Assembly: GCA_945916235.1 (NCBI GenBank) | Contig: CAMEGQ010000018.1 | Coordinates: forward strand, 1-38,140 | From: an uncultured Porphyromonadaceae bacterium | GTDB taxonomy: Bacteria > Bacteroidota > Bacteroidia > Bacteroidales > Muribaculaceae | Direction of reading: 5' to 3' | DNA length: 38,140 nt | Part shown: positions 10,606 to 37,088 of the stretch, in pieces | Position numbering within the stretch: position 1 is the first letter of the stretch | Layout of the letters: each line of letters begins with the position of its first letter | The notes under the pieces: generated by a model | Told to the model about the DNA's origin: nothing | Seen by the model: only the letters and a program-made list of their open reading frames with translations | The model's database searches: none | Translations under genes and position numbers: made by a program

Positions 10606-10682
10606 CTGTAAAGAAAATTGAAAATTCTTTACAGCATTTTCGGAATACTGTAAAGAAACCCCGATTTTCTTTACAGTATTCC
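10606..10682. repeat. two hairpins built from four CTGTAAAGAA units
   Basis: The unit CTGTAAAGAA occurs four times in alternating orientation. The first pair (10606-10615 with 10625-10634) forms a 10-bp stem. The second pair (10642-10658 with 10666-10682) forms a perfect 17-bp stem with a 7-base loop and spans the stop codon of the terminase gene. The block could work as a tandem terminator for leftward transcripts, or as a protein-binding site. Confidence 0.85.
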
Positions 10683-12317
10683 GCCAGTATCGATCATGGC
10701 GACGCCGGAATATGGGCGGCGCTCGCATCCGATGTAGAGGGTGTCGAAGGCGTCGGTGCCGTCCGTACGGTGCTCGAGCAGGTCTTCCTCCGACTCTGCG
10801 AGCTTCTCCCCCGACTTGTTCTTGCGGAAGCCGTTGCGTCCGCGCTCCACACCGGCCGACTGGATGGCGAGAATCAGGTCATCGTTATTCTGTCGGTTGA
10901 AGTATGGGGTGAGACGGTTCTTTCCGGCGAACCCACGGTTGATCAAGTTATATTTTTCATCATGGCGCATTGGGTTGCCGAGAGGCACAGGCACCACGCG
11001 CCAACCATGACGCTCGAATTCCGAGATGATAGAATATCTGAAGTCGATGTTGTTGACGGCGTAGTTAGAGCCGAGAGCGGTGGTATCGTAATAGAAGACC
11101 ACCGTCTTCTCCCGATGGTGGGCGTAATACTGGCAGAAGTTTGCAATCAGCGCCGGGATCTTACGGTCAAACTTGACGTAGAAAGATTTTAGGACGTTGA
11201 GACGGCCGAGCCTCTCATCAGGCTGGCCGGCCACTATCCAGTTGATGTTGGCGTTGTAGTCCATGCCGATGCAGATGGGTGCGTAGCGGTCGAGGTCGCG
11301 GTCCGCGCGGCAGTCCATAGCCTCCGGAACGAACTCATAATCGAATGAGTCGAGATACTCGAAGTCCGAGGCGTTGTATTTGTGATCCTCCTGCATCGAG
11401 GAGTAGAAGCCATCCTTGGCGATGCCGATCTTGCGGCACATGATGGATGTCTGGAATGTAAGCGGCGTTAGGTCGCGCTTCATGTCGCGCAGATATTGCT
11501 CGCCGAGGAGCTCCACATTTTCCACCGAGGAATATTCGCGGTAGTATGTGGCCACGGAGCGGAGGCGGTTGACGTTGCGGTCGAGGCGCCGGAGGTGCCC
11601 CTTGAGATAGTCTGGCGGCTCAATGCCGGCCTTGCGCATCTCGAGGATCTTTTGCTTGAGGCGCCAGATTTCATAGACGCCGCCGCCGATAGCGTCGATG
11701 ACCCGCTTATCCATTTTTTTCTCATACTCCAGGAACCACGATCCCTTTTTAGACTGCGGCATATCGGAGAGAATGAGCATCGCATGGTTGAAGGAGTGGC
11801 GGCAGAAATGCGTCTTGATGCCGCCGTTGGCCGGCAGTGTTTCCTGAGTGAGCTTGACAGGGTCGACGAACTTTGCCTCGTCGACCAGGACCCAAGAAAG
11901 AGTCAGAGAGTTTGCGGCTCCGGGCCTGTCCTGCGAAAGGATCACGGCCACGGAGCCATTGTAAAAGGCGATGACGTTTTCCCACTGGAGCGGCTCTGTG
12001 ATAGGCTGGGCGAAAGATTTTGGCGGTTTCCGCCCCACCACATAATGGATGCCTCTCTTATATCCCCATCGGGTCCATGCCGCGAAGAGTCCGGGGAGAG
12101 TATTAGTGAGGCCGTGCTTGAAGGTAGGCACGACAATGCCTCCCGTAGAGCCCGGCATCCTCTGGATCATTTTCAGGATGTATGGAGCTGCGATGGAGTC
12201 CGTCTTGCCCGTACGACGTCCTGCCACGATGACTGTAGTCCTCGCGGCTATCAGTTGTGTTGTCAGCTGCGGGCGGTTGAAATATACCTGCTTCGCTTTG
12301 GGATTCGTCTGGATCAT
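10671..12317 (-). CDS. terminase large subunit
   Basis: This 548-aa DNA-packaging motor has an N-terminal ATPase with Walker A GRRTGKT at residues 33-39 and Walker B LVDEA at 144-148. The C-terminal RNase H-like nuclease has candidate metal-binding Asp353 (GMDYN), Asp411 (YYDTTA) and the Asp cluster at 519-525 (DGTDAFD). It uses ATP to drive DNA into the prohead and cuts the concatemer. It overlaps the small-terminase candidate by 4 bp (ATGA), so the two are translationally coupled. Its last codons lie in a long hairpin. Confidence 0.95.
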   Translation of the reverse strand: MIQTNPKAKQVYFNRPQLTTQLIAARTTVIVAGRRTGKTDSIAAPYILKMIQRMPGSTGGIVVPTFKHGLTNTLPGLFAAWTRWGYKRGIHYVVGRKPPKSFAQPITEPLQWENVIAFYNGSVAVILSQDRPGAANSLTLSWVLVDEAKFVDPVKLTQETLPANGGIKTHFCRHSFNHAMLILSDMPQSKKGSWFLEYEKKMDKRVIDAIGGGVYEIWRLKQKILEMRKAGIEPPDYLKGHLRRLDRNVNRLRSVATYYREYSSVENVELLGEQYLRDMKRDLTPLTFQTSIMCRKIGIAKDGFYSSMQEDHKYNASDFEYLDSFDYEFVPEAMDCRADRDLDRYAPICIGMDYNANINWIVAGQPDERLGRLNVLKSFYVKFDRKIPALIANFCQYYAHHREKTVVFYYDTTALGSNYAVNNIDFRYSIISEFERHGWRVVPVPLGNPMRHDEKYNLINRGFAGKNRLTPYFNRQNNDDLILAIQSAGVERGRNGFRKNKSGEKLAESEEDLLEHRTDGTDAFDTLYIGCERRPYSGVAMIDTGGIL

Positions 12318-16716: not shown

Positions 16717-17034
16717 TTACTTGAATGCTTTGAGGAATGCCTTCGAGGCGGCGATGCCGTCGGCATAGGAAACGGGGGCGTAGGGATCGGCCTCGTCTTT
16801 CTTGGATTCGACGACTTCGGAGGTGGGAGCGGCGGGCTCTTTGCGGAGCTGGGCGATAGTTCGGTCGCGTTCGGCGAGCTGCGACTTTAGCTCTGCAATC
16901 TCGGCATCCTTTTCGGAGGCCTGCTGTGCGGCTGCAGATTCAGGCGCGGCCTGAGGCTCGGCCTGCTGAGCTGCCTGTGCCTGCGACTCCGGAACGGGAG
17001 CCGGCTGTGCGGAGGGAGAGGTAGGTTTGTCCAT
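16717..17034 (-). CDS. possible nested scaffold protein (internal start)
   Basis: An ATG at 17034 inside the protease gene would give a 105-aa protein made only of the linker, coiled coil and C-terminal tail. The 20 bp before it are strikingly A/T-rich (AAAATTTATCATCT) within a GC-rich gene, which is the usual look of a Bacteroidales start. Separate scaffold made from an internal start is known in lambda (C and Nu3). Not proven here. Confidence 0.4.
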   Translation of the reverse strand: MDKPTSPSAQPAPVPESQAQAAQQAEPQAAPESAAAQQASEKDAEIAELKSQLAERDRTIAQLRKEPAAPTSEVVESKKDEADPYAPVSYADGIAASKAFLKAFK

Positions 17035-17778
17035 AGATGATAAATTTTCTGGCTCGGAGCCGGGAGTGCCGTCATTGTCGGCATGTTCCGTCGCCGGAGC
17101 ACTGTTGCTGTTGAATGATCTGAGGAATGCGAAGAAGCGGTCGAGCATCGAGCCCTTCTTCCCTGAGTAGCCGGGAGGGAGTGGAATGCCCGCCGAAGAG
17201 ATGGCTGCTGCCGATTCGGGGGAGAGAGGCTGTTTGTCCTCTGCGTCGTCGGTGATTTCGTCGACGAAGCCCCATTCGAGCGCCTCCTGCGCGGTGAGCC
17301 AGGAATCCTTGCTCATGAGCTGAAGAAGCTCCTCCTTCGACTTTTTGCAGCGGCGGGCGTAGAGCCCGGCGACGATGGCGTCGATGTTCTGCTGATCCTC
17401 CTTCTGCTTTTCGAGCTTGCGGATATGTTCGTCGAGCTGATCGGCGTTCATGTAGTCCCACTCGAAAACGAGGTTCGAGCAACGGTGCACGAGGAAGGCT
17501 GCGTCGGCGTCGATGGTGATGCGCTTCGCGCCCATGGCGGCGATAGTGGCTGCGGAGGCCGACTGGCCGATAAAGTGCACGTGTACGTTGCCGTGGATCT
17601 TGAAGAGCGACGAGATGGCAAGCCCCTCGTGGGTGTAGCCACCGAGGGAATTGATCAGCACGTTGACCTCCGTGTCTTTGTACTTCTCGAGGATCCAGTT
17701 TACCATGTCGGAAGTGAAGTTGCCCGACCAGCGGGAGCCGACTTCACCCTTGAGGAAGATGTGGAAATTTTTTGGCAT
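16717..17778 (-). CDS. Clp-type head maturation protease with scaffold tail
   Basis: This 353-aa protein has an N-terminal S14 (ClpP-like) domain with catalytic Ser75 (GQSASAA), His98 (LVHRC) and probably Asp158 (KDSWLTAQEALEWGFVDEI). A Pro/Ala/Gln-rich linker and a coiled coil (about 285-320) follow, as expected for a fused capsid scaffold. It would shape the prohead and then cut itself and the capsid arm. The start at 17778 is used because the upstream in-frame ATG (17976) only adds shadow residues of the previous gene. Confidence 0.9.
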   Translation of the reverse strand: MPKNFHIFLKGEVGSRWSGNFTSDMVNWILEKYKDTEVNVLINSLGGYTHEGLAISSLFKIHGNVHVHFIGQSASAATIAAMGAKRITIDADAAFLVHRCSNLVFEWDYMNADQLDEHIRKLEKQKEDQQNIDAIVAGLYARRCKKSKEELLQLMSKDSWLTAQEALEWGFVDEITDDAEDKQPLSPESAAAISSAGIPLPPGYSGKKGSMLDRFFAFLRSFNSNSAPATEHADNDGTPGSEPENLSSMDKPTSPSAQPAPVPESQAQAAQQAEPQAAPESAAAQQASEKDAEIAELKSQLAERDRTIAQLRKEPAAPTSEVVESKKDEADPYAPVSYADGIAASKAFLKAFK

Positions 17779-17834
17779 AGTTCGGCAAAGAATTATGCAC
17801 CAAAAATAAGCATCCCGCAGGGAGGCAAAAAAGA

Positions 17835-18248
17835 CTATAAAACGCAGGGGATCGCCGATTTCAGGGCGATATGGGTGATTTTGTAGGTCCTGACGGCGGC
17901 ATCGCCGGAGGGAGAGCCGGCGGTTTCGGAATAGTTGACCTGGGGATATTTCGGCTCGCGCGTGCCGACGAGCCATTGCTTTCCCGAAGCGCCGGTGAGG
18001 ATGAAGGCGAGATGCCTTCCTTCTGGGAGGATGTCGGATGTGGCGAATTCGAGAGTCGTTTTTTCCTGACGGCCGCCGGAAGAGAGCGAGCCTTCGGTCT
18101 CGAACTTCGGGTCGCCGTAGAAGCGGACCTCGACGGCAGGGAGGGCGAGATCTACGACGGCGCCGCAGATAGACTGCTGCATTGCGTGCGGCTGGATGTT
18201 GGCGCAGTCAGTGTAACGGATGGAGACAATACCGGGGAGAGTGTTCAT
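17835..18248 (-). CDS. hypothetical phage protein (137 aa)
   Basis: This 137-aa, beta-rich protein has Cys residues near the N-terminus (TDCANIQPHAM, ICGAVVDLAL) and a C-terminal KITHIALKSA segment. It precedes the head protease by 56 bp. No family is recognised. Its place suggests a head-assembly or minor virion protein. Confidence 0.6.
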   Translation of the reverse strand: MNTLPGIVSIRYTDCANIQPHAMQQSICGAVVDLALPAVEVRFYGDPKFETEGSLSSGGRQEKTTLEFATSDILPEGRHLAFILTGASGKQWLVGTREPKYPQVNYSETAGSPSGDAAVRTYKITHIALKSAIPCVL

Positions 18249-19631: not shown

Positions 19632-19931
19632 CTATTCCGGACGCATGAGCCATCCGAACGAGCCGGAGCTGTTGCGCCCGGGACGGAAACCGTAGAAGAG
19701 CATGGCGGCGTTGACTTCGTCGTGAGTGAGGTCGGCCATCTCCTGGAGGTCGGCTATGATGTCGGCGGTGGGGCGCACCAATACCCCTTTCTCAAAAACG
19801 AGGGGGGCGGAGAATCCGGTGAGATACTCACCGAGGATCTGCATGTTTGGCGACGCTTTGACTTCGCCGCTGTCGGGGATGTCTTTCCCGGCGGTGGTGC
19901 GCATGAAGTCGTCGATCTTCTTATTGTCCAT
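19632..19931 (-). CDS. hypothetical protein (99 aa)
   Basis: This 99-aa protein (MDNKKIDDFM...) has a helical C-terminal part and a final RNSSGSFGWLMRPE. The start at 19931 is chosen over ATGs at 19937 and 20132 because AGGAGG lies 8 bp before it, the best spacing. It overlaps the upstream gene by 11 bp. No family is recognised. It is the last of three small genes behind the structured leader at 20.5-20.7 kb. Confidence 0.7.
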   Translation of the reverse strand: MDNKKIDDFMRTTAGKDIPDSGEVKASPNMQILGEYLTGFSAPLVFEKGVLVRPTADIIADLQEMADLTHDEVNAAMLFYGFRPGRNSSGSFGWLMRPE

Positions 19932-20223
19932 CTCCATCACCTCCTTCCTCGTCGACTTCGTCTTTGTCCTCGACGATATCGGCATCGGCGACGAAGTCAT
20001 AAACCACATTAGGGTAGGCGAGGCCGTGCATCCTGATGTAGGTGCCGAGGACGTTGTGGAGAGTGACCAGGTCGGCCGCGTTCTCGAGGTCGATGCTGCC
20101 GAGACCGGTGATCTCGTCGTATGTTTCGACATACGCCGAGACTGAGAAATGCTCCTTGTCGGGAGTGCCTTCCGGCGAGAAGCTCACCTCCCGGGCGATC
20201 TTGAAATCAGGCTTCGGGCTCAT
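19921..20223 (-). CDS. hypothetical acidic protein (100 aa)
   Basis: This 100-aa protein ends in a strongly acidic tail (VADADIVEDKDEVDEEGGDGDGQ). A canonical AAAGGAGGTG lies 6 bp before the ATG, and ATGA overlaps the stop of the membrane-protein gene upstream. No domain is recognised. Acidic tails occur in DNA mimics and in protein-interaction tails; nothing more can be said. Confidence 0.7.
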   Translation of the reverse strand: MSPKPDFKIAREVSFSPEGTPDKEHFSVSAYVETYDEITGLGSIDLENAADLVTLHNVLGTYIRMHGLAYPNVVYDFVADADIVEDKDEVDEEGGDGDGQ

Positions 20224-20471
20224 GCTTCACCTCCTTTCCGGCAGGCGAGACGGACGAAGCCGAGGGCGACGAACGCGGCGGCGAAGGTGATGGGATCAGA
20301 GCCGAGAAGCGCACCTGCATAGCAAGCGGCGGCGCTGATGACGGCGAGGGTCAGAGACTTGCGGCGTGCGAGTGAGATAGCACGTGCGCACATTTTCCGT
20401 ACATTGACGGCACGGAGGGCGCGGGAGGCGCGGACTGCGGGCGCATGGCCCTGGATTGTTAATGCATTCAT
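20220..20471 (-). CDS. small membrane protein (83 aa)
   Basis: This 83-aa protein has a basic N-terminus (RASRALRAVNVRKMCARAISLARRK) and two hydrophobic segments (about 40-56 and 60-74). It is the first gene after the structured leader RNA. The ATG lies only a few bases after the last repeat of that leader, so leader folding could control its translation. Function unknown. Confidence 0.6.
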   Translation of the reverse strand: MNALTIQGHAPAVRASRALRAVNVRKMCARAISLARRKSLTLAVISAAACYAGALLGSDPITFAAAFVALGFVRLACRKGGEA

Positions 20472-20499
20472 ATAGCATCAGTGATGTAGCAGGCAGACT

Positions 20500-20577
20500 A
20501 AAAAAACGGCTGCCGTTCCGCTGCTACACCACTGATGCCGTCTCTTGCGAGCGCAACCTTGATACGGAACGACAGCC
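20500..20577 (-). terminator. terminator 2 of the leader
   Basis: A 13-bp stem (20565-20577 with 20508-20520, one G-T pair) has a 44-base loop and is followed by seven T on the minus strand. The loop holds arm A', which can pair with arm A downstream or A3 upstream. Confidence 0.65.
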
Positions 20578-20603
20578 TTATAAGTGCTATCGATTACGGG
20601 CAT

Positions 20604-20645
20604 AAAAAAAGCCCGAAAGAAGTCGAGCATTAACCGCGCTCGGGC
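20604..20645 (-). terminator. terminator 1 of the leader
   Basis: GCCCGA pairs with TCGGGC, followed by seven T on the minus strand. It lies about 25-65 bases after the predicted start, so it would release a short RNA of about 65 bases. An inner CGAGC/GCTCG pair competes for some of the same bases. Confidence 0.7.
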
Positions 20646-20676
20646 GAGACAGGCAGCTGTCAGTGATGTAGCACTG

Positions 20677-20708
20677 CAAATTTACGACAAAAAAACGACA
20701 GTGCCAAA
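20677..20708 (-). promoter_or_regulatory. promoter of the leader and three small genes
   Basis: On the minus strand TTTG (20705-20708), 20 bp, then TAAATTTG (20677-20684) matches the Bacteroidales promoter in both boxes and in spacing. GTCG precedes and CAGT follows the -7 box, as at 21899. Confidence 0.8.
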
Positions 20709-20726
20709 CAAAATGGGAAATAATTT

Positions 20727-21656
20727 TTATTTCCCGGCATTGAGCATTTCGAGGAAGTCTTGCTCGTCGATAATCTCAATGGCGCATCCCTTTTCCTTGT
20801 ACTTTGCGGCAGTCTTCATCTTTCCGCTCAGACCTTTTTCGCCCACTACGCGGAGATCCTGGACTCCGACAACAAGAAAGTCTGTGTCCATGGTGAGACG
20901 CTCCGGGGCGAAACCTCCAATGCGGACGACAGCAGCACGAGCGTCATCACGCTTCATGGACTCCATCTTGCCGGTAAAAACTACGTTCATGCCGTAGAGA
21001 TCATTGTCGGGTTGAGCGTCGACAGGGATTGATGACTGGTCGAATTCCGGACGATCCTTGCGCTTTGAATAGTCTCTCTTACATAATGACGGAGTGAATG
21101 TTTCCGGAGATAATAGTCCTTCCTGGATCTTGGCGGTCGAGAGGAATGCTTCGAGGGATTCCTCGGCGACATTCTCCAGTCCCTTCAATGCGAGGTCAGC
21201 CCAGCGTTCCGCGATGGCTACCGGTTCATCTGTTGTGATGCAGTCGTTATACAACAGATAACTCAGATAGTCGAGGCTGTACGATACTTCGTCCATGGTC
21301 TTTCGACATATTGCCTTCGCGTTACAGTATCGAATAGGCTTGAAATCCACTCCCAGGCGTGTGAGCGTTCCGTGTAAGCTCCTGGCCGCATATCCCTCAG
21401 CGGATGACATACACATGTCGTATCGGTCGAGAATGGACTGAACTTCGGCCCACTTGTCGCTGTACGACGGGGAAGAATTCACATCCGTTTCTTTGATTCC
21501 GGACATGACGAAATAAAACGGTGCCTCCGGGTTCAGGAAAAACTCTTGAGACTGCTGGCGGATTCCATCAACGACCGGGACGATTATAAGGTGACATACG
21601 GAGTCCTGATCCATATTGACGTTCTCTGCGTGTATTAATGCGAATGTCGGTTTCAT
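20727..21656 (-). CDS. degenerate DnaQ-like exonuclease fused to a BRCT domain
   Basis: In this 309-aa protein residues 1-180 follow the order of a DEDD 3'-5' exonuclease (FALIHAENVN at the start; strand and helix pattern to ITTDEPVAIAERW). However, the first Asp of the D-x-E motif is His, the H-N-x-x-F-D motif is missing, and the last metal ligands are not clear. Residues about 222-309 form a BRCT domain (GMNVVFTGKMESMKRDDARAAVVRIGG). The exonuclease half is probably inactive, leaving a protein-binding or DNA-end-binding BRCT. It lies in the early region, last before the leader promoter. Confidence 0.72.
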   Translation of the reverse strand: MKPTFALIHAENVNMDQDSVCHLIIVPVVDGIRQQSQEFFLNPEAPFYFVMSGIKETDVNSSPSYSDKWAEVQSILDRYDMCMSSAEGYAARSLHGTLTRLGVDFKPIRYCNAKAICRKTMDEVSYSLDYLSYLLYNDCITTDEPVAIAERWADLALKGLENVAEESLEAFLSTAKIQEGLLSPETFTPSLCKRDYSKRKDRPEFDQSSIPVDAQPDNDLYGMNVVFTGKMESMKRDDARAAVVRIGGFAPERLTMDTDFLVVGVQDLRVVGEKGLSGKMKTAAKYKEKGCAIEIIDEQDFLEMLNAGK

Positions 21657-21975: not shown

Positions 21976-22491
21976 TCAGAACAGCGTGGGCGTGGTGTCG
22001 AGGCGAGCCTTGCGGATGGCGTCGAGGTGTTCCTCGGCTTCCTTCTGGGCTGCTTTGGCAGCCTTGACACCCTTGATGGCCTCGTTGACGGCCTGCAGGG
22101 CTTTGATCTCGGCCTCGTTCTCCTCGACGCGACGGCGCAGAGACCCGGCGAAGTGGGTGTATAGTGCCTGGTAGCACTCCAGCTGATACTTCTCCACAAT
22201 GTCGCGGCGCTCCTCCGCCACGAGATTTGTGTCGATTGAGAAGAGCCATCCATATATGAATTCAAGAGGCAAGCAGACCATATCATAAGTCTTGCCGTCT
22301 GCTCCAGTTGTGTGTAAGTTACACACAACTGAACCAAGGATGCGATGTCGTTTCACGGCCTGGATCTGACCGGAAACATTTAGTGTGAGAGCGTCACAGA
22401 TAGGACGCACTGGAACGAAGAAGTTGTGCTCTTCGTCACGTACGGCAGCTATTTCGATGCCGTTTACTTTTGCGATGAATTGTTTGTCCAT
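21976..22491 (-). CDS. phage antirepressor (P22_AR_N type)
   Basis: This 171-aa protein has residues 1-110 that match the P22 antirepressor N-terminal pattern: FIAKVNGIEIAAVRDEEHNFFVPVRPICDAL, then KRHRILGSVVC and YDMVCLPLEFIYGWLFSID. The last 50 residues are a charged coiled coil. Antirepressors bind and block the prophage repressor and so favour lytic growth. P22 Ant carries a further C-terminal domain that is absent here. It ends the early transcript and lies 7 kb from its likely target at 29.3 kb. Confidence 0.85.
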   Translation of the reverse strand: MDKQFIAKVNGIEIAAVRDEEHNFFVPVRPICDALTLNVSGQIQAVKRHRILGSVVCNLHTTGADGKTYDMVCLPLEFIYGWLFSIDTNLVAEERRDIVEKYQLECYQALYTHFAGSLRRRVEENEAEIKALQAVNEAIKGVKAAKAAQKEAEEHLDAIRKARLDTTPTLF

Positions 22492-29331: not shown

Positions 29332-29748
29332 ATGAAGCACATAGGTAAAATTTTGAAAGAGCACATCGAGAGCAACCATCTTGTAAAGGGTGAAGTGGCT
29401 GATAAGGTGGGCATTAGCTATAACTATCTGTCGACAATATTCAAGCAGGAGAGCGTCGACGCGAAATTGCTTGAGAAATTATGTATCGCTACGGGATTAC
29501 ATCCGAACGTGGTGTTCGAGATTCCGGAAGAGCTTGAGAACAGCTACAAGGATATCTGGGCGAAAACGATACTCGGCACGGCGAAAGTGCATATATCGGC
29601 CAATGAGGACCTGAAGGCGATACTCGCCGAGAAAGAGCGGGTGATCGAGGAAAAGGAGCGCACGATCCAGATTTTGATGGCAAGTGCCGGTATTTCCATA
29701 CCGGGACGGGAACGGGACAGCAACGACAATAAAACGACAGCAAAATAG
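29332..29748 (+). CDS. Xre-family repressor-like protein
   Basis: This 138-aa protein has an N-terminal HTH (about 5-60: ILKEHIESNHLVKGEVADKVGISYNYLSTIFKQ), a linker, and a C-terminal charged coiled coil (AILAEKERVIEEKERTIQILM) that would let it dimerise. It has no LexA-type peptidase domain, so induction by self-cleavage is unlikely; the antirepressor at 22 kb is a more likely trigger. Divergent from the Cro-like gene and followed by a terminator and integrase. Best candidate for the lysogeny repressor. Confidence 0.8.
   Translation: MKHIGKILKEHIESNHLVKGEVADKVGISYNYLSTIFKQESVDAKLLEKLCIATGLHPNVVFEIPEELENSYKDIWAKTILGTAKVHISANEDLKAILAEKERVIEEKERTIQILMASAGISIPGRERDSNDNKTTAK
29702..29720. repeat. 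19-bp repeat R1, possible integrase arm site
   Basis: CGGGACGGGAACGGGACAG matches R2 (29863-29881) at 17 of 19 positions. It overlaps the 3' end of the repressor-like gene. Confidence 0.8.
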
Positions 29749-29950: not shown

Positions 29951-31156
29951 ATGTGTGCAAACGAAAGCTCCACACCTGAGAAATATGGTGTGGCCATGAG
30001 AAACGAAATGAGCGGAGTGGCCTCCGCAATCAGTTACACGCTGCCCGTTCCCCGGGAAACGGCATCCGGAAGCTACGTCGAGTTCTACGCCTTCGACCCT
30101 GAGCATGGCCGACTCCGACGTAAACGAATCAAGACAAACAGGGTGAAGGGTGTTGTCAAACGCCGACAGTATGTCCGGGATCTGATAAAGCGACTCGGTG
30201 ATCAGTTAAAAAGAGGATGGAATCCCTGGATCGCCAAAGATATCTCCGAACTTTACATTTTTGAGGAGGTGGTGGAGCGCTACATGGCGCACATCGACAA
30301 GATGTTTGAAAGCGGTTACTACCGAAAAGAGACTTATAACGGATATAAATCCTATTTAAAAATTCTGAGGAAGTATGCGCAGAAAGTGAAGCCTATCTAC
30401 TACGTATATCAGTTCGACCGGACTTACTGCGTTGAGTTTCTGGACTACGTCTTCATCGACCGTGACAACGGTGCGCAGACGCGCAATAACTACCTGCAAT
30501 TTCTCCGACTTTTCTCCGGGTTCATGGTGGAGAAAGGTTATCTGAAGAGCCGTCCGACTGAGGGGATAGCCCCCATCAGCAAACGGCTCTACAAGAAGGA
30601 GCGGACGGTGATCCCTGCCTCGACGGTGTCGAAGATTGCCGACTACTGCAAGGAGCATGACAGGCATTTCCTGCTTGCCTGTTACCTGCTTTACTACTGC
30701 TTCATCCGTCCTGTTGAGATGACGCGCCTCAGAGTGCAGGACTTCTGCCTTAAAAGCGGTACGATCACCATACCTGCCGAATGCTCGAAAAACAAGCAGA
30801 GGCAGACGGTGACTGTACCGAAAAAAGTTCTGAAATATGCGCTGGAGCTGGGGATATTCTCGGCTGCGGTGCAAGATTATGTATTCTCCGACTGGCTGCG
30901 CCCCGGGCCCAATATGATTGATCCGAAGATATTCCGTGACCACTGGGCGAAGCTCCGCAAGCCCTTGCAGCTGAAAAGGGAGTGGAAGTTCTACTCCCTG
31001 AAAGACACCGGTATCACCGAGATGCTTGAATCGAAGCTCGCCTCGATAGAGGTGAGAGACCAGGCACGGCACTCCTCGCTGGCCATAACGGAGATATACA
31101 CCGACCATCGGAGCGAGGCGAATCCTGAGATCTTCGAGATCGACGGTTCGCTTTAA
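29951..31156 (+). CDS. tyrosine integrase
   Basis: This 401-aa site-specific recombinase has an N-terminal arm-binding part, a SAM-like core-binding domain (about 100-200) and a catalytic domain with Arg253 (CFIRPVEMTRL), an LKDTG box in place of the usual HxLRHT, His374 (ARHSS) and nucleophile Tyr383 (IYTDH). It inserts and removes the prophage. ATG at 29951 is preferred over a GTG at 29930, as it follows AAAAAA and leaves the inverted repeat outside the gene. Its stop overlaps the stop of the convergent hub gene. Confidence 0.92.
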   Translation: MCANESSTPEKYGVAMRNEMSGVASAISYTLPVPRETASGSYVEFYAFDPEHGRLRRKRIKTNRVKGVVKRRQYVRDLIKRLGDQLKRGWNPWIAKDISELYIFEEVVERYMAHIDKMFESGYYRKETYNGYKSYLKILRKYAQKVKPIYYVYQFDRTYCVEFLDYVFIDRDNGAQTRNNYLQFLRLFSGFMVEKGYLKSRPTEGIAPISKRLYKKERTVIPASTVSKIADYCKEHDRHFLLACYLLYYCFIRPVEMTRLRVQDFCLKSGTITIPAECSKNKQRQTVTVPKKVLKYALELGIFSAAVQDYVFSDWLRPGPNMIDPKIFRDHWAKLRKPLQLKREWKFYSLKDTGITEMLESKLASIEVRDQARHSSLAITEIYTDHRSEANPEIFEIDGSL

Positions 31157-32970
31157 TCGTCGACGAGAGGCCAGAACTCCCCCTTCATCAGCCGCGACAT
31201 TCCGCCATCTGTGAATGTCGCGGTTATTTTTTCGCAGATGTAGCGTTTCCCCTGAATGTAGAAGACGGCCCGCACGTCGGGGATGGTATCGGAGAGAAAC
31301 TTGAAGGTCGTTTTGGTTTTAGGGTCGACTTTGTGGACGCATTGGCCACGCGCTGCCCTCGCGTTGTTCAGGCGGAGGGAGAAGTGGACGTAGGCGAAGT
31401 TGCTCCAGTTGTCGTCATCGATGACAACATCATCTACATTCGGGTATGGGAGATGGGAGCCCGTGAAGTAGTTAGAGCCGTTATACCAGCCGATATAAAT
31501 GCGGTCGTAATATTCCGATGTTTTTTCCTTTTGTCCGGCATCGAGAGTGGAAACGGTGAGCGTCTGGCGGAATGGGATGCTTCCCTCATCTTCCGCCGTT
31601 GACGTGTCTGTCTCTTCATCATAGTCCGAGAGGTGGAGGAAGAGGACTCGGCCATATTGTTTGTCGGTGTCGTCGATCCATGCCGGCACGAATTCGATCT
31701 CCTCCGATTCGGCATTGTCTGAATCGTCGACAATGCGTCCGCCGAAGAGATTGACCGGTTGCAGGCGGCATTTATATTCAATCCGGATCAGGGTCTCCTT
31801 ATCCCAAGATATGGTGCGCCGGATAGGGTTTATTAAGAAATATGCATCGCAGTCCGCGGCATGGTAAATCCCCTCGAGGAATCTTCTTGACTCGTTGCCC
31901 CCGTCCCAAGTGCTGTATTTCTTGTTTTGCTCCACCAGCTCGCTCATGGTTTTGTATTCATGCATCGCGAAGGGTTGACCTTTGATAAACCAGTCGCAAG
32001 AATAGAACTTCCACATCCGGTGATCGCAATCTTTATAGACGAGATTTTTCATCTCCCGGTATTCGCAATTTCCATCCTCATCCTTGATGGTAGTCGTGTG
32101 CTCGTCGACAACATTTTCGAGGCTTACGGGAGCGAGGCTCTCGAGTGTGGCGCGGGTAAAAGCGAAAGAAACTTTCTTCGCGCGGTGGTCGATCTCGAAT
32201 TCTCCGTCGAGGAAGAGTTCCAGCTTCTCGAAATACTCCTTCACTGACCAGTGGGGTAACGCTGCGGCGAAACCGGGCATATACCAGGCATGAGGCAGGG
32301 TGTTGCAGACGAGCAGATATTTATATTCCTCCTTGGCTTCCCACTTGGAGAAGTCGGCGGCATATCCTACGGCCTTGCATATTTGTTTCGTGAGGTGGAG
32401 GAGATATGGCTGCCATGAGAGGCCGGTGGTGTCCTCGCTCCATTCGAAATGCGACTTCTTTTGTGCCTCGTCGTCGACGATATGATCCGCCTTATTCTGG
32501 ATATTTTTCGAATAGTCATTCACCCACGGCAGTGCCACATACTTGAACTCCGAGAATTCCGGTGACCATGCGTTTGCCGGCGTGATGGCCGTCTTATCCG
32601 TAGTAGGAGGTGAGCCGAGGCGGAGTTCGTTGATGTAGACTTTGTCCCAGGTGTCGTCGAAGTTTTGTTCGGAGCGGCCGGCGAGGAACTGCAGCTTCAC
32701 GTTTTGCTCTGTGATTTCAGTGATTGTGGCGGTGCCGAACTTCGTAAAGTTCGCGCAGCGGATCTCGCAGTCGAAGCGGATTCTTCCGGCCACGACGTCT
32801 GCGCGGTTGATATGGCCGAAGATGCGCTGATTGACGATGCATCCGGCGAGCGGGAGGGTAATAGCGAAGGTGTAGTCGTCGCCGCCGCCGAAGAGACGGT
32901 TTTCCGAGACATACTCGAAGGAGCTGCCGGCCTTTATGGCTGCGACTTTATTGTCGATGATGATCTGCAT
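31153..32970 (-). CDS. putative tail hub / baseplate protein
   Basis: This 605-aa protein starts one base from the tape-measure gene (shared boundary at 32970). Size, place and beta-rich pattern with long acidic segments fit the distal tail or hub protein found after tape-measure genes in siphoviruses. It contains a Trp-rich middle and a DEGSIPFRQTLTVSTL region. No catalytic motif is seen. Convergent with the integrase, with the TTAA at 31153-31156 holding both stops. Confidence 0.65.
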   Translation of the reverse strand: MQIIIDNKVAAIKAGSSFEYVSENRLFGGGDDYTFAITLPLAGCIVNQRIFGHINRADVVAGRIRFDCEIRCANFTKFGTATITEITEQNVKLQFLAGRSEQNFDDTWDKVYINELRLGSPPTTDKTAITPANAWSPEFSEFKYVALPWVNDYSKNIQNKADHIVDDEAQKKSHFEWSEDTTGLSWQPYLLHLTKQICKAVGYAADFSKWEAKEEYKYLLVCNTLPHAWYMPGFAAALPHWSVKEYFEKLELFLDGEFEIDHRAKKVSFAFTRATLESLAPVSLENVVDEHTTTIKDEDGNCEYREMKNLVYKDCDHRMWKFYSCDWFIKGQPFAMHEYKTMSELVEQNKKYSTWDGGNESRRFLEGIYHAADCDAYFLINPIRRTISWDKETLIRIEYKCRLQPVNLFGGRIVDDSDNAESEEIEFVPAWIDDTDKQYGRVLFLHLSDYDEETDTSTAEDEGSIPFRQTLTVSTLDAGQKEKTSEYYDRIYIGWYNGSNYFTGSHLPYPNVDDVVIDDDNWSNFAYVHFSLRLNNARAARGQCVHKVDPKTKTTFKFLSDTIPDVRAVFYIQGKRYICEKITATFTDGGMSRLMKGEFWPLVDD

Positions 32971-35900
32971 TATTTGCGCGATTTGGGGTTTTTGTTAGAG
33001 ATGTATTGCTGATACTCGTCGAGTCCTGCGTTTATGCCGTGCTCGCCGGTGACCGTGACCACGGCACCGATCGGGTGCTCGAGTCGGCGGTCGAGCGCGT
33101 CGATCACCTGGGCGTTGCGTGCCATGGCGGCCACCATTAGCGCGGTGCCGTCATTGATTTCGGCTGCCCGGGCGAGGGAGTCGTTGGCTCTGATCGAGCG
33201 CGACACATCCTCGGAGCGGAGCGAGCCTATGGTGTTTGTGCGCTGCGCATAGTCCAGAGCCTCGATCATCGGACGGGCTACAGGACTTGCGAGAAGTTTC
33301 TGCGAGGCAACCCACTCACCGGCGTGAACCACTCCTGCGGGCTCGTCGACGCGCCCCGGGCGCGTGAAACCACCTTTGGAGTACCCCTGGGACTCCGACG
33401 CCTGCTGCTGCTTCTTGATAGCCGCAATCTGTATGGCACCGGCTGCCACGGCCATGGCTGCGGCAATAGGGGCGAGAATATATCCGACCACCGGTACAGC
33501 TGCGGCGGAGCCGTATGCGTTCAGTGCGTTAGTCGCTGTCTGCGCCACTGCCTGAATGATTTGCATAGCAAACATTTTTCTGTTGGCCTCTTTTTTTGCC
33601 TTGGCCTGCTCAGCGTCGCGCTGCTTCTCCAGCTTCTTGATCTGATAGGTGTTTCCCTCGGCCCTGGAGATCTCGGCGTCATAACGCTTGTTTATGGCTG
33701 CCGTCTGGATCTCCAGTTCGGCCTGCATCATGGTAGAGAGACCGGAAAAGATTGACGACATGCCGGAAGTCAGGGTGTCAAGAGTCCCGGTGAGAGCTTT
33801 TCCGCCATCGCCGTTGAGCCACTCGAGTGAAGACTCTACGGCATCCTTCATGGCGTTTTTCGATCCTTCTCCTGATTCCTGATCATACTGTTTTTGCAGG
33901 GCGAGTTTCGCTTCCTGGTAAGCCTTTTCGATGCGGAGCTTCTCGTCGGCATTATCTTGCGCGGCGAGGAGCTCGGCTTGATAGACCTCGTTAAGCATGG
34001 CGAGATCCTTGTCGTAGGACTCTTTCTTTTCTGTTGCGTTGGGCCCGAAATATTTATCCTTCATAGAGGCCAGCTTCTTCTCATGCTCGGCCTGCGCCTG
34101 CTCATACTCCTGCTGGTGTCGCTTGGCTGCTTTCAGCCGTGCCTCGAGATACTGCTGCTCGGCCTTGGCCCGTGCCTCGGTGCCCTCCTCGGTGAGATAG
34201 GTGAGGACGGATAGATGCTCGAGCTCGGCGAGTTCGAGCGCCTCCTGATGGGCTTTTTCAACAGCCTCCATCTCCTTGGACGAAAGGTTTCCGGCCTCCA
34301 GCTTTTCGGCATACTGTGTTTTAAGAGCGGTAACCTGCTCTTCGTAGGCATCGTTTTCCCACCCTACCCACATCTCACCGGCGGCCTGCGTGCGTTTGTT
34401 GACGGCCTCCCAGTATTGAGCCAATATCTGGAGGCGCTCGTCGCCGGCGACATCGTCACGGTCGAGGAGCTTAGTATAATAATCCTCCTGGATCTGGCTC
34501 ATGCGGAGAGTGTACTGCTCGTAGTCAGACTCTCCCTTCTGATAGGAGATCTTGGCAAGCGCCTCCTCGCGATCCTTCCATGCCTTTTCCTTCTCGAAAC
34601 GGTCTTTGGAAGAGCCGCGGCCGGAACCGCCGGTTGGAGTGGAAGTTGGAGTTGGTTTCGGTGTTGGAGACTCAGTGGCCTCTTCGACAACATCATTAGC
34701 CACATCTTTTCCAAGTTCTTTTTGCTCAATTTCCAGGCCTCGGTTTTTTTCCTGATAGTCGGAGGTTACTTGATTAACAACCCTGTTTAGAAATGAATAT
34801 TCCGGATGCTTGGTAGTGTCGCTTACTTTAAATAGTTTTGCTTGAAGAGGATCGTTTTCTGCACTTAATATCTCTTTGTCTGAAACTTCGACATCTTCGA
34901 GAACCGATTCCAATTTTCTCCTATAGTCCCTTTTTGCCCGGAGAATTTCGGATGCCGTTTCCGCGAGTAAATCTTTACGCGCTTTTGCCCGCGCGCTCCT
35001 GATAATGCTCTCCCTTAGGCGCTCATAGGCATCGGCGGCATTACCCGCAAGTATTGCCTCATTAGATAAGTCTTTAAAGATCTGGGGATATAGCTCCCTC
35101 ATTTTATTTGCTGCAGCTATTCGCTGCCCCATCGCCAATGTCTGATTTTGCGTGGCTTTATACAGCGCGTCGAGCCTTGTTATCTCCACTTTGCAGTCAG
35201 CCTCTGCCTGCTGCTCGGCATCTGCTATTTTTTTGTGAGCATCTGCAAGCATCTCCGCCTCTGTTTTAGTCTTGCGGGATGTAAGGTAAAATGTGAACAA
35301 TACTGCTGTAGCTGTGGCAATGGCTGCTGCAAGAGCCTTCCATGGCGTTGCTGCCAATGCCAGCCTCCACCGCTGCTGCATCTCGTAGTTGACCTGTAGC
35401 CCCTTGGTGAAATATAAGACCGTATTAGTTACGGCTGCGATTGCAAGCCGGAAATGCGGTAAAATCTTGGAACCTAAGAGGACGACAGCATGCCATGCCT
35501 TCGTTGCCAATGTGGCCGCTTTTGTGGTGATTGTGGATATATTCAGCGCGACGGTATATGCCGCAATAGCGGCTGTTATCGTCACGATGGCCACCTTATG
35601 CTTATAGAAGAAGTTAACCATCGCCAATAGCGCACGGATGATGGCTGCGGAAGAGGTCAGGAAGTGAGAAACCACCGGCTGGAGCTTCTGTCCGAGTTCG
35701 ACGCGGATTTCCTCTGCGGCTTTTTTACACTTGTCGAGGCCTGCTTGCACGGTATTGTTTTGAACGTCGAACTCTTTATCGATTGAGGTTGCCTCGCTGA
35801 ATGCCTTGTTGGCCTCTGCCTGCTGCGCCTTGACTTCGTCGATGTGCGTGGCGAGTGTGGAGAGTGCGGAGATGGCGCGTGAGCCGTTCTCCCCCATATC

Positions 35901-37088
35901 CTTGAACATCGGCGAGAGCACGTCCATGCCTCCGGCTTTCTGGAGTGTGTCGAGGAACATCAGGAGTGCCCCGTTGGCATCCTGCTTGAGCATGGTGGAG
36001 AACTTCTGCACGTCGAGGCCTGCGACTCGTGCATATTTTGCGGGGTCTTGCATCATGCGCACGAGCACCTGCGACACTGCTGTTGCCGATGCTTCGACCT
36101 TCTGCTCGTTGCTGTCGAGTACGGCGGCGAAGCCCATGATCTGCTGGATGGTCATGCCCGCCTGAGCACCTACGCCGCCCATACGGGAGGCGAACTCGGC
36201 GAGATATGGCGCGGAGGCGGAGCAGTTCTGTGAGAGTTCGTTGATCACCGAACCGACCGAGAGCAGTGCTTTCTCGGTGCCGAGGCGTTTCTCATCGCCG
36301 AAGATGCCCGTCAGCTTTGAGAGGGTGAGCGTTGCACCCTGCCCGAGGTCGTCGAGGGCGACGTTTATTTTGTCAGCGGCGCGGACAAAACCCTCGATAT
36401 CTTCCGGCGCGGTCTTGCCGAGACGGCCCGCCTCTTGCGCGAGCTTGTTGAGATCCTCGCGGCTGGTGCGAGTGTCCATCCCCTTGAAGACTTCGTTGAG
36501 GTCTGCTACCTGTTCGGCTGTCAGACCGGTAAACTTCCGAACGTTGGCCATCTCCTGGTCCATCGTTGCGAAGGCATTGACGGCATCGCGCGCGAGCTCG
36601 ATGAAGCTGGTTCCCCACTGGTCGAGGAGGTCGAGGGCAGGCCATGCATCCTGCGAAAATGCCTTGAATTTATCCCACAAAGAATCTTTTTCTTTGCCCT
36701 CCGCATTGAGCTCCGCAATGCGGTCTTTGAGCAGCTTTATTTTCTCGATATGAGAGTCCCAGGTTTCCGTACCGGGAGGCATGTCTTTCAGCTGTTTTTT
36801 GAGGGTGCGCAGTGCCTTCTCCAGCTGTCGGGGCGTGGCTGAGTCGAGGTTGCTCAGGGCGTTTTCAACACCCTCGGTAGCGGATTTTATCTCATCGAGC
36901 TGCTTTTCGTAGTTTTTCAGCTCCTTCCTTGCTTTTTGGATCTCCTTCGGGTCGGCCATTCTCCCCTTTAGTTCGGAGATTTTATCCTTGGTGTCGGATA
37001 TTTTCTTTTCAAGTTCGGACATCATCTGCTTCGCCTGAGCACCATTGATGTTAAGCGTAACAGTAGCCGTATCTCTTATTCCACTCAT
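32970..37088 (-). CDS. tail tape measure protein (TP901 type)
   Basis: This 1372-aa protein has an N-terminal coiled coil (15-120) and a TP901 core domain (about 165-480; FTGLTAEQVADLNEVFKGMDTRT, APYLAEFASRMGGVGAQAGMTIQQIMGF). Hydrophobic segments lie at about 490-600, long coiled coils at about 840-1200, and a second hydrophobic stretch near 1230-1265 (AAVPVVGYILAPIAAAMAVAAGAIQIAAI). It sets tail length and reaches into the host membrane on infection. Length suggests a tail of roughly 200 nm by the usual 0.15 nm per residue rule. A hairpin lies 2 bp before the ATG. Confidence 0.92.
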   Translation of the reverse strand: MSGIRDTATVTLNINGAQAKQMMSELEKKISDTKDKISELKGRMADPKEIQKARKELKNYEKQLDEIKSATEGVENALSNLDSATPRQLEKALRTLKKQLKDMPPGTETWDSHIEKIKLLKDRIAELNAEGKEKDSLWDKFKAFSQDAWPALDLLDQWGTSFIELARDAVNAFATMDQEMANVRKFTGLTAEQVADLNEVFKGMDTRTSREDLNKLAQEAGRLGKTAPEDIEGFVRAADKINVALDDLGQGATLTLSKLTGIFGDEKRLGTEKALLSVGSVINELSQNCSASAPYLAEFASRMGGVGAQAGMTIQQIMGFAAVLDSNEQKVEASATAVSQVLVRMMQDPAKYARVAGLDVQKFSTMLKQDANGALLMFLDTLQKAGGMDVLSPMFKDMGENGSRAISALSTLATHIDEVKAQQAEANKAFSEATSIDKEFDVQNNTVQAGLDKCKKAAEEIRVELGQKLQPVVSHFLTSSAAIIRALLAMVNFFYKHKVAIVTITAAIAAYTVALNISTITTKAATLATKAWHAVVLLGSKILPHFRLAIAAVTNTVLYFTKGLQVNYEMQQRWRLALAATPWKALAAAIATATAVLFTFYLTSRKTKTEAEMLADAHKKIADAEQQAEADCKVEITRLDALYKATQNQTLAMGQRIAAANKMRELYPQIFKDLSNEAILAGNAADAYERLRESIIRSARAKARKDLLAETASEILRAKRDYRRKLESVLEDVEVSDKEILSAENDPLQAKLFKVSDTTKHPEYSFLNRVVNQVTSDYQEKNRGLEIEQKELGKDVANDVVEEATESPTPKPTPTSTPTGGSGRGSSKDRFEKEKAWKDREEALAKISYQKGESDYEQYTLRMSQIQEDYYTKLLDRDDVAGDERLQILAQYWEAVNKRTQAAGEMWVGWENDAYEEQVTALKTQYAEKLEAGNLSSKEMEAVEKAHQEALELAELEHLSVLTYLTEEGTEARAKAEQQYLEARLKAAKRHQQEYEQAQAEHEKKLASMKDKYFGPNATEKKESYDKDLAMLNEVYQAELLAAQDNADEKLRIEKAYQEAKLALQKQYDQESGEGSKNAMKDAVESSLEWLNGDGGKALTGTLDTLTSGMSSIFSGLSTMMQAELEIQTAAINKRYDAEISRAEGNTYQIKKLEKQRDAEQAKAKKEANRKMFAMQIIQAVAQTATNALNAYGSAAAVPVVGYILAPIAAAMAVAAGAIQIAAIKKQQQASESQGYSKGGFTRPGRVDEPAGVVHAGEWVASQKLLASPVARPMIEALDYAQRTNTIGSLRSEDVSRSIRANDSLARAAEINDGTALMVAAMARNAQVIDALDRRLEHPIGAVVTVTGEHGINAGLDEYQQYISNKNPKSRK

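What the first reader, a model, noticed from the sequence alone, without database searches (positions are those of the whole stretch)
20472..20708. Leader RNA with tandem terminators and interleaved repeats before three small genes
A textbook Bacteroidales promoter (20677-20708) fires into 200 bp without genes. There I see two intrinsic terminators (20604-20645 and 20500-20577) and three copies of one 13-17-base arm (A3, A', A). A' sits in the loop of terminator 2 and can pair either with A3 at the RNA 5' end or with A just before the first ATG. Terminator strands and arms interleave, so folds are mutually exclusive or form a pseudoknot. This looks like a built-in RNA switch, an antitermination element in the style of HK022 put, or a small RNA. 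I know of no described match.
Basis: partly seen in the sequence, partly recalled or inferred. Interest (0 to 1): 0.72.

Follow-up and report, generated by a model that had tools for sequence, protein, structure and literature searches.

The report
Barcoded antisense RNA leader in phages
Temperate phages of gut bacteria carry, just in front of small-gene and structural-gene operons, a short RNA leader with a guide and two matching targets whose letters differ from copy to copy yet stay matched, suggesting a private RNA lock on phage genes like the RNA immunity of phages P4 and P1, but with no known relative.

Summary
The window element (20474-20708, minus strand) belongs to an undescribed RNA family of Bacteroidales temperate phages: 119 non-redundant members collected, matches in 55 of 297 genomes of the window's family. 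The shared scaffold is a promoter, target A3 at the RNA 5' end, a four-strand attenuator (T1), and a terminator-type hairpin (T2) whose loop holds the guide A'. A second target, A, touches the ATG of the first gene. Arms are hypervariable, yet each A' fits its own A and A3: 97.9% and 92.3% of core positions pair in 93 strong members, against 56% and 55% shuffled. Imperfect pairs are mainly G.U, so pairing is kept in RNA. The order equals phage P4 immunity (seqA, CI RNA, seqC) and the Gifsy-1 IsrK locus. Best explanation: a P4/C4-like antisense leader that shuts its operon by early termination and by covering the start of a coupled first gene. No Rfam family matches, C4 included. New: several orthogonal units per phage, 22 of 45 with a profile-supported structural gene within 6 kb. 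Expression and trans action are untested.

The parts
20677..20708 (-). Bacteroidales-type promoter: TTTG (20705-20708) and TAAATTTG (20677-20684)
   Evidence: Sequence; TAnnTTTG upstream in 83 of 95 strong members vs 4 of 95 shuffled
20660..20673 (-). A3, target arm at the RNA 5' end (seqA-like)
   Evidence: 13 Watson-Crick + 1 G.U of 14 with A'
20648..20661 (-). H1, small hairpin GACAG-CTGC-CTGTC that overlaps the end of A3
   Evidence: Fold; by eye a hairpin of varying sequence follows A3 in many relatives, not counted
20597..20642 (-). T1 attenuator: strands GAGC / GCUC / GGGC + U7 / GCCC; 2:3 is the terminator, 1:2 and 3:4 are alternatives
   Evidence: T1 and H3 core pairs 30-31 of 31
20500..20577 (-). 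T2, terminator-type hairpin that carries A' in its loop; taken to be the source of the guide RNA
   Evidence: 20509-20582: z -4.07, 0 of 200; pair counts
20542..20551 (-). H4, CUC-GCAA-GAG mini-hairpin inside the T2 loop
   Evidence: Helix columns 31-33/39-41 paired in 93.5% of cells
20521..20539 (-). A', guide arm (seqB-like)
20474..20492 (-). A, second target arm, 2 nt before the ATG (seqC-like)
   Evidence: 17 Watson-Crick + 2 G.U of 19 with A'
20220..20471 (-). orf1, 83 aa, small and hydrophobic by eye; the A arm is its translation start region
   Evidence: SD-like motif before 0 of 84 orf1 in strong members
19921..20223 (-). orf2, 100 aa, overlaps the end of orf1 and is preceded by an AGGAGG site
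   Evidence: SD-like before 60 of 70 coupled orf2 in strong members
19632..19937 (-). orf3, about 100 aa; start chosen by eye within the longer frame 19632-20132
   Evidence: its frame is one of a BLAST cluster of 21 proteins behind such units

Best explanation
It is a self-targeting antisense leader, wired like phage P4 immunity and like P1 C4-icd-ant. The host-type promoter fires; transcripts that end at T2 (perhaps then trimmed) release a hairpin RNA showing A' in its loop. That RNA pairs in trans with A3 on newly made leaders, shifting T1 to termination, and with A on transcripts that got through, covering the start of orf1. As orf1 has no Shine-Dalgarno site and orf2 is coupled to it, blocking orf1 stalls the whole operon. 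The operon is thus held low in the lysogen, and any incoming phage with the same arms would be silenced too. Shown here: anatomy, conservation, RNA-level covariation of both pairings, non-matching arms of co-resident units, position of A at the start of orf1. Inferred: that the RNA is made, that it acts in trans, that A3 pairing favours termination, and the immunity role.
For: Self A' x A is the best match of its row in 93 of 119 members, mean score 38.3 against 18.8 with other members; A' x A3 in 87 of 119, 34.1 against 17.3. Core positions pair 97.9% (A) and 92.3% (A3) against 56.4% and 54.7% shuffled, n=93. G.U outnumbers the A.C that the same kind of transition would give: 28 v 6 (A), 98 v 24 (A3). 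Of 91 strong members with a clear A, 84 have an ORF of 40 aa or more starting a median 1 nt from A; SD-like motif before 0 of 84 orf1 and 60 of 70 coupled orf2. T1 is a four-strand attenuator. Order and logic equal P4 seqA-CI-seqC and Gifsy-1 IsrK-STnc1160-orf45-anrP, where an sRNA controls orf45 translation and coupling carries it to anrP (PMC4825925, passages). One relative (L053) places the unit directly before a Rha protein, as C4 sits before icd-ant. Co-resident units do not cross-match: 1 of 80 ordered pairs scores 30 or more.
Against: No transcript, processing or protein data. Arms in cis (a T2-A pseudoknot) would covary just as well, so trans action is not shown. 22 of 119 members, mostly weak model hits, lack a clear A' x A match. 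The lack of cross-matching within a genome is no rarer than between unrelated members (1.3% of 9232 pairs); among close scaffolds avoidance is only suggestive, 0 of 18 against 19 of 133, one-sided p 0.076. In the scaffold test, the number of pairs with any change on both sides is not above shuffles (6 v 5.2, 150 of 500; 5 v 3.7, 79 of 500). The phage also has an HTH regulator gene (29332-29748, weak family hits), so RNA need not be its immunity. P4 and C4 control replication or antirepressor genes (recalled); the genes behind these units are mostly of unknown function.
Confidence: 0.6

Rival explanations
1. Cis-only switch. A' chooses between A3 and A on the same transcript: A'-A3 frees the start codon, A'-A forms a pseudoknot with T2 and shuts orf1. 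No RNA acts on other molecules.
For: A' ends about 3 nt before the 3' strand of T2 (inspection), and A begins 8-37 nt beyond T2, 12-24 nt in 40 of 50, a spacing that suits an H-type pseudoknot. RNAfold of the leader pairs A' with A.
Against: A purely cis helix has little reason to change its letters so fast and to differ between close copies: scaffold about 0.92 identical (17 pairs), arm 0.76, null 0.44; but the scaffold is constrained, and drift with compensation is not excluded.
Confidence: 0.2
2. IsrK-like activator. The short RNA ending at T1 carries A3 and works in trans as a sponge or activator that takes A' away from A and so turns the operon on.
For: Same layout as IsrK, whose short form raises orf45 and anrP translation in trans (PMC4825925 passages). 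A3 is built weaker than A: A scores higher in 79 of 97, with G.U 1.73 against 0.55 per helix.
Against: Needs an excess of the weaker arm; no expression data.
Confidence: 0.12
3. Operon attenuator serving phage development only: T1 and T2 keep host-promoter transcription out of structural genes until a phage antiterminator or upstream read-through passes them; arms only tune this.
For: 22 of 45 strong members with at least 3 kb downstream have a PHROG-supported protease, portal or tape-measure gene within 6 kb on the same strand.
Against: Does not explain three coordinated hypervariable arms; 8 of 45 have no structural seed hit at all.
Confidence: 0.05
4. DNA-level inverted repeats (invertible segment or protein-binding sites).
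For: A3 and A' are inverted repeats flanking 120 bp in the window.
Against: Mismatches are G.U four times as often as A.C; opposite-strand model hits are weak (about 30 bits or less) and overlap the forward ones.
Confidence: 0.01
5. Type I toxin-antitoxin with orf1 as toxin.
For: orf1 of the window is small and hydrophobic by eye.
Against: orf1 falls in several unrelated BLAST clusters, hydrophobic and not, and in L053 is a 344-aa Rha protein.
Confidence: 0.02

Closest known systems
Phage P4 immunity (CI RNA; targets seqA and seqC)
   Same: Target upstream, guide RNA in the middle, second target downstream; guide pairs with both; premature termination of an operon (PMC4825925 passage; promoter and kil detail recalled).
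   Different: No Rfam match; Bacteroidales phages; guide sits in the loop of a terminator-type hairpin; four-strand attenuator after the first target; several non-matching units in one phage. P4 itself was not aligned.
Gifsy-1 IsrK / STnc1160 / orf45-anrP
   Same: Short terminated leader RNA, second processed RNA with complementary sequence, leader ORF whose translation is controlled and coupled to the next gene (PMC4825925 passages).
   Different: There the short RNA activates, and the target is an antirepressor operon; hypervariable multi-copy arms are not described in the passages I saw.
C4 antisense RNA of P1/P7 (Rfam RF01695) and c4-a1b1
   Same: Guide RNA and target made from one promoter; control of a leader gene (icd) coupled to ant (recalled; C4 and Icd regulating Ant seen in PMC8201110 passages).
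   Different: No C4 match over cut-off in 6 genomes that carry our element. Table 1 of PMC2864571 (passages) lists C4 in Proteobacteria and phages, c4-a1b1 in gamma-Proteobacteria and phages.
HK022 put
   Same: Structured leader near terminators in a phage.
   Different: put has no guide/target arms (recalled, not tested).

Membership tests
P4 CI-type immunity | Target - guide - target order on one transcript, guide complementary to both | tested here: met
   Order and complementarity; that it is one transcript is inferred
P4 CI-type immunity | Guide RNA released by processing and acting in trans | not testable with these tools
   Needs RNA work
P4 CI-type immunity | Controls premature transcription termination | tested here: inconclusive
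   T1 and T2 are terminator-type; termination not measured
P4 CI-type immunity | Homology to the P4 immunity region | tested here: inconclusive
   No Rfam family at the window and only sub-threshold hits in L104/L046; P4 itself was not aligned
C4 antisense RNA (RF01695) | Match to the covariance model over its cut-off | tested here: not met
   0 of 6 genomes over the cut-off and no sub-threshold hit at a unit; the 14 control genomes were not over it either, so no positive control fired
C4 antisense RNA (RF01695) | Target overlaps the start of a leader gene coupled to the next gene | tested here: met
   84 of 91 and 60 of 70; coupling itself inferred from overlap and SD
C4 antisense RNA (RF01695) | Controls an antirepressor | tested here: not met
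   In the window, orf1-orf3 have no Pfam or PHROG match and the Ant-like gene lies upstream. L053 is an exception (Rha); first genes of other units were not all scanned
IsrK-type dual RNA | Short terminated 5' RNA plus read-through mRNA | tested here: inconclusive
   T1 would give an RNA of about 70 nt; not measured
HK022 put | RNA that modifies polymerase in cis for antitermination | not tested
   No test run

The most novel reading that the evidence does not exclude
Bacteroidales temperate phages lock several of their own operons, structural modules among them, each with a separate, privately barcoded antisense RNA. The barcode (guide plus two targets) changes as a set and diversifies because prophage-made guides silence any incoming phage that shares it, so that RNA barcodes define many overlapping immunity groups, operon by operon, in the gut.
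Probability: 0.27. Interest if true: 0.9.

Novelty: new variant of a known kind. Interest (0 to 1): 0.75.

Why it matters
How gut Bacteroidales phages keep lysogeny and who is immune to whom is largely unknown. If right, immunity groups could be read straight from a 15-18-base arm in metagenomes. It would also show that the P4/C4 style of RNA control, known to me only from proteobacterial phages, arose or spread in another phylum, and it offers dozens of natural guide-target pairs with little cross-matching for gene control in Bacteroides.

Tried and rejected
Rfam at permissive E-value on 20300-20900 gave three hits far under their cut-offs; gathering scan of the window none; L104/L046 two sub-threshold hits, one of them (mir-5615) over a T2, taken as chance. 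BLAST of the window element against phages found only a 28-29-base match in two records of one Agrobacterium phage. Another member (L071) found three unannotated human faecal phage records; the two I fetched carry the element, the third was not fetched. L038 found none in phages, L076 none in plasmids. RNAalifold on the MAFFT alignment found only 10 pairs, as the variable arms spoil the alignment; I named the structure myself, which leans the pair counts towards it. A first arm parser over-extended helices and a first arm anchor was wrong; both were replaced and no number from them is used. T2 hairpins as free-standing guides: tested with a T2-only model; every hit listed lies on a full-model hit (compared by eye), and in 60 held sources only L058 4290 and L071 503 are T2 without T1 and A, both just upstream of a full unit, best cross-score 28.5 and 32.0, no convincing target. 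Tandem satellites: dropped when the genes showed copies inside one prophage. Host targets of the window arm: besides the locus itself only one site with 2 mismatches; the backward control also gave 1. The search for related loci with orf1 found nothing.

Rows dropped: of 52 candidates, L065 (Acetobacter, chance) and L077 (cut off) were left out, giving 50. For one search I copied in sense-strand model hits of about 30 bits or more without most duplicates; left out were L176, L177, L185, L186, L187, L189 (25-31 bits), the unfetched hit in G186, and L223/L224 found later; the script kept 119. One search used the 93 with at least 60 bits and a helix of 12 or more; its register was chosen by the best helix, so the fair control is the off-diagonal comparison. 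first counted 37 of 45 units before 'structural' genes, but several of its seeds came from the units' own neighbours and were labelled by me; on checking, PHROGs supports protease, portal, head, terminase and tape-measure seeds only, and with those alone the count is 22 of 45 (18 of 35 with a full 6 kb).

Full report
WHAT IS THERE. The window is a 38-kb contig with the genes of a temperate tailed phage: a weakly scoring HTH regulator 29332-29748 and a tyrosine integrase 29951-31156 on the plus strand; head protease 16717-17976 and terminase 10671-12317; tape measure 32970-37088. The element lies on the minus strand between genes of DNA metabolism and regulation and the head protease. A second unit with different arms is on contig C20 of the same assembly.

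HOW THE FAMILY WAS FOUND. DNA search of 148 related genomes gave the first relatives. A pattern of T1 plus the start of T2 gave 21 stretches in named genomes, one of them (Acetobacter) a chance match, and 31 in IMG/VR viral contigs. A covariance model of T1 and T2 (R1, 31 sequences) then found matches at E 0.01 or better in 55 of 297 genomes of the window's family and 9 of 295 drawn from the order, the window's own among them. With filters off the window holds one unit.

THE SCAFFOLD. R1 structure: 93.0% of cells pair against 88.2% in shuffles (0 of 500), 50 cells with changes on both sides against 21.7 (0 of 500), while slid versions pair 36-47%; but pairs with any two-sided change are 6 against 5.2 (150 of 500). 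T2 alone: 89.9% against 85.5% (0 of 500), and 5 against 3.7 pairs (79 of 500). T1 is a ladder of four strands, GAGC, GCUC, GGGC followed by the U run, and GCCC. GCUC:GGGC is the terminator; GAGC:GCUC (22-30 of 31 per pair) and GGGC:GCCC (30-31 of 31) exclude it.

THE ARMS. Within each member the guide A' fits its own targets and not those of others. In the first 50 members the self match was best of its row in 47 (A) and 46 (A3); in 119 members, weak ones included, 93 and 87. In 93 strong members the 15-base core pairs at 97.9% (A) and 92.3% (A3), against 56.4% and 54.7% shuffled. Non-Watson-Crick cells are G.U in 28 of 57 (A) and 98 of 205 (A3), while A.C, which transitions make equally often, is 6 and 24: the pairing is kept at the RNA level. 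A3 is weaker than A (79 of 97) and begins close to the likely transcript start.

ORTHOGONALITY. Arms change faster than the scaffold: at scaffold identity about 0.92 (17 pairs) mean arm identity is 0.76, at 0.82 (582 pairs) 0.62, shuffled arms 0.44. The scaffold is constrained, so this alone does not prove diversifying selection. Units in one genome do not match each other: 1 of 80 ordered pairs scores 30 or more, mean 20.5, near the background of 19.0 and 1.3% between genomes. Among pairs with scaffold 0.85 or more, 0 of 18 same-genome pairs and 19 of 133 others cross-match, p 0.076: suggestive only. WM24 has three units (65149, 73468, 86993), which also lie together in one 41,651-base IMG/VR contig. 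Some units are stacked in tandem: L083 two, L150 three.

WHAT THE UNITS CONTROL. Of 91 strong members with a clear A, 84 have an ORF of at least 40 aa starting a median 1 nt from the end of A (range -8 to 7); none of the 84 has an SD-like motif, while 60 of 70 coupled second ORFs do. So A is the start region of orf1, and orf2 probably depends on orf1. Among 45 strong members with at least 3 kb downstream, 22 have a PHROG-supported protease, portal or tape-measure gene within 6 kb on the same strand. Fifteen more hit only seeds that I had labelled structural by position and that PHROGs does not name, and 8 hit none. The window is one of the 22. orf1 proteins fall in several unrelated BLAST clusters; in L053 the first gene is a Rha protein followed by PHROG-supported portal, protease and head genes.

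MECHANISM. The order target - guide - target, with control of a coupled leader ORF, is that of P4 immunity and of IsrK-STnc1160-orf45-anrP. I saw passages of PMC4825925, of PMC8201110 on P1 C4 and of PMC2864571 on c4 and c4-a1b1; other P4 and C4 detail is recalled. I therefore favour an antisense leader that shuts its operon by T1 termination and by covering the orf1 start. Not shown: that the RNAs exist, that A' acts in trans, which way A3 pairing pushes T1, and any immunity phenotype.

NOVELTY. Rfam has no match at the window, only sub-threshold hits in L104/L046, and C4 is not met. Paper searches of the held open library listed nothing that describes this element by title or start of abstract; several lists were capped (27: 20 of 511; 35: 12 of 19; 95: 8 of 644; 96: 8 of 11), and subscription journals are mostly not held. 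I file it as a new variant of a known kind: it appears to work like P4/C4/IsrK, it does not match C4 or any Rfam family, and several private units in one phage are new to me.

Noticed in passing
window 21976-22491 (-): P22_AR_N / Ant antirepressor-like gene upstream of the unit, with a gene matching DNA-ligase-type PHROGs (20727-21656) in between; WM24 has a similar-looking gene by eye (L104 8181-8717).
   Followed up: partly
L053 7477-7632 (-): A unit directly in front of a 344-aa Phage_pRha protein followed by portal, protease and major head genes: the most C4-like arrangement seen.
   Followed up: partly
L150 1460-2784 (-); L083 11541-12043 (-): Tandem stacks of three and two units with different arms; in L150 one unit has almost no gene behind it, in L083 a unit interrupts the orf1 of the one before.
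   Followed up: partly
L071 503-581 (-); L058 4290-4370 (+): T2-like hairpins without T1 and without A, just upstream of full units; guides of unknown target or decayed copies.
   Followed up: partly
L044 8143-8307 (+): The A arm appears twice before the ATG, as a partial and a fuller copy.
   Followed up: no
L223 (MT836146.1) and L224 (MT836345.1): Unannotated phage scaffolds from human faeces (Mexico) carry the element.
   Followed up: partly
window 19632-19937 (-) and the cluster of 21 proteins: Small-protein family with a conserved C-terminal half (about ...GYR...G..W.L, by eye) recurs in cassettes behind many units; the window member and one other tested have no Pfam match.
   Followed up: partly
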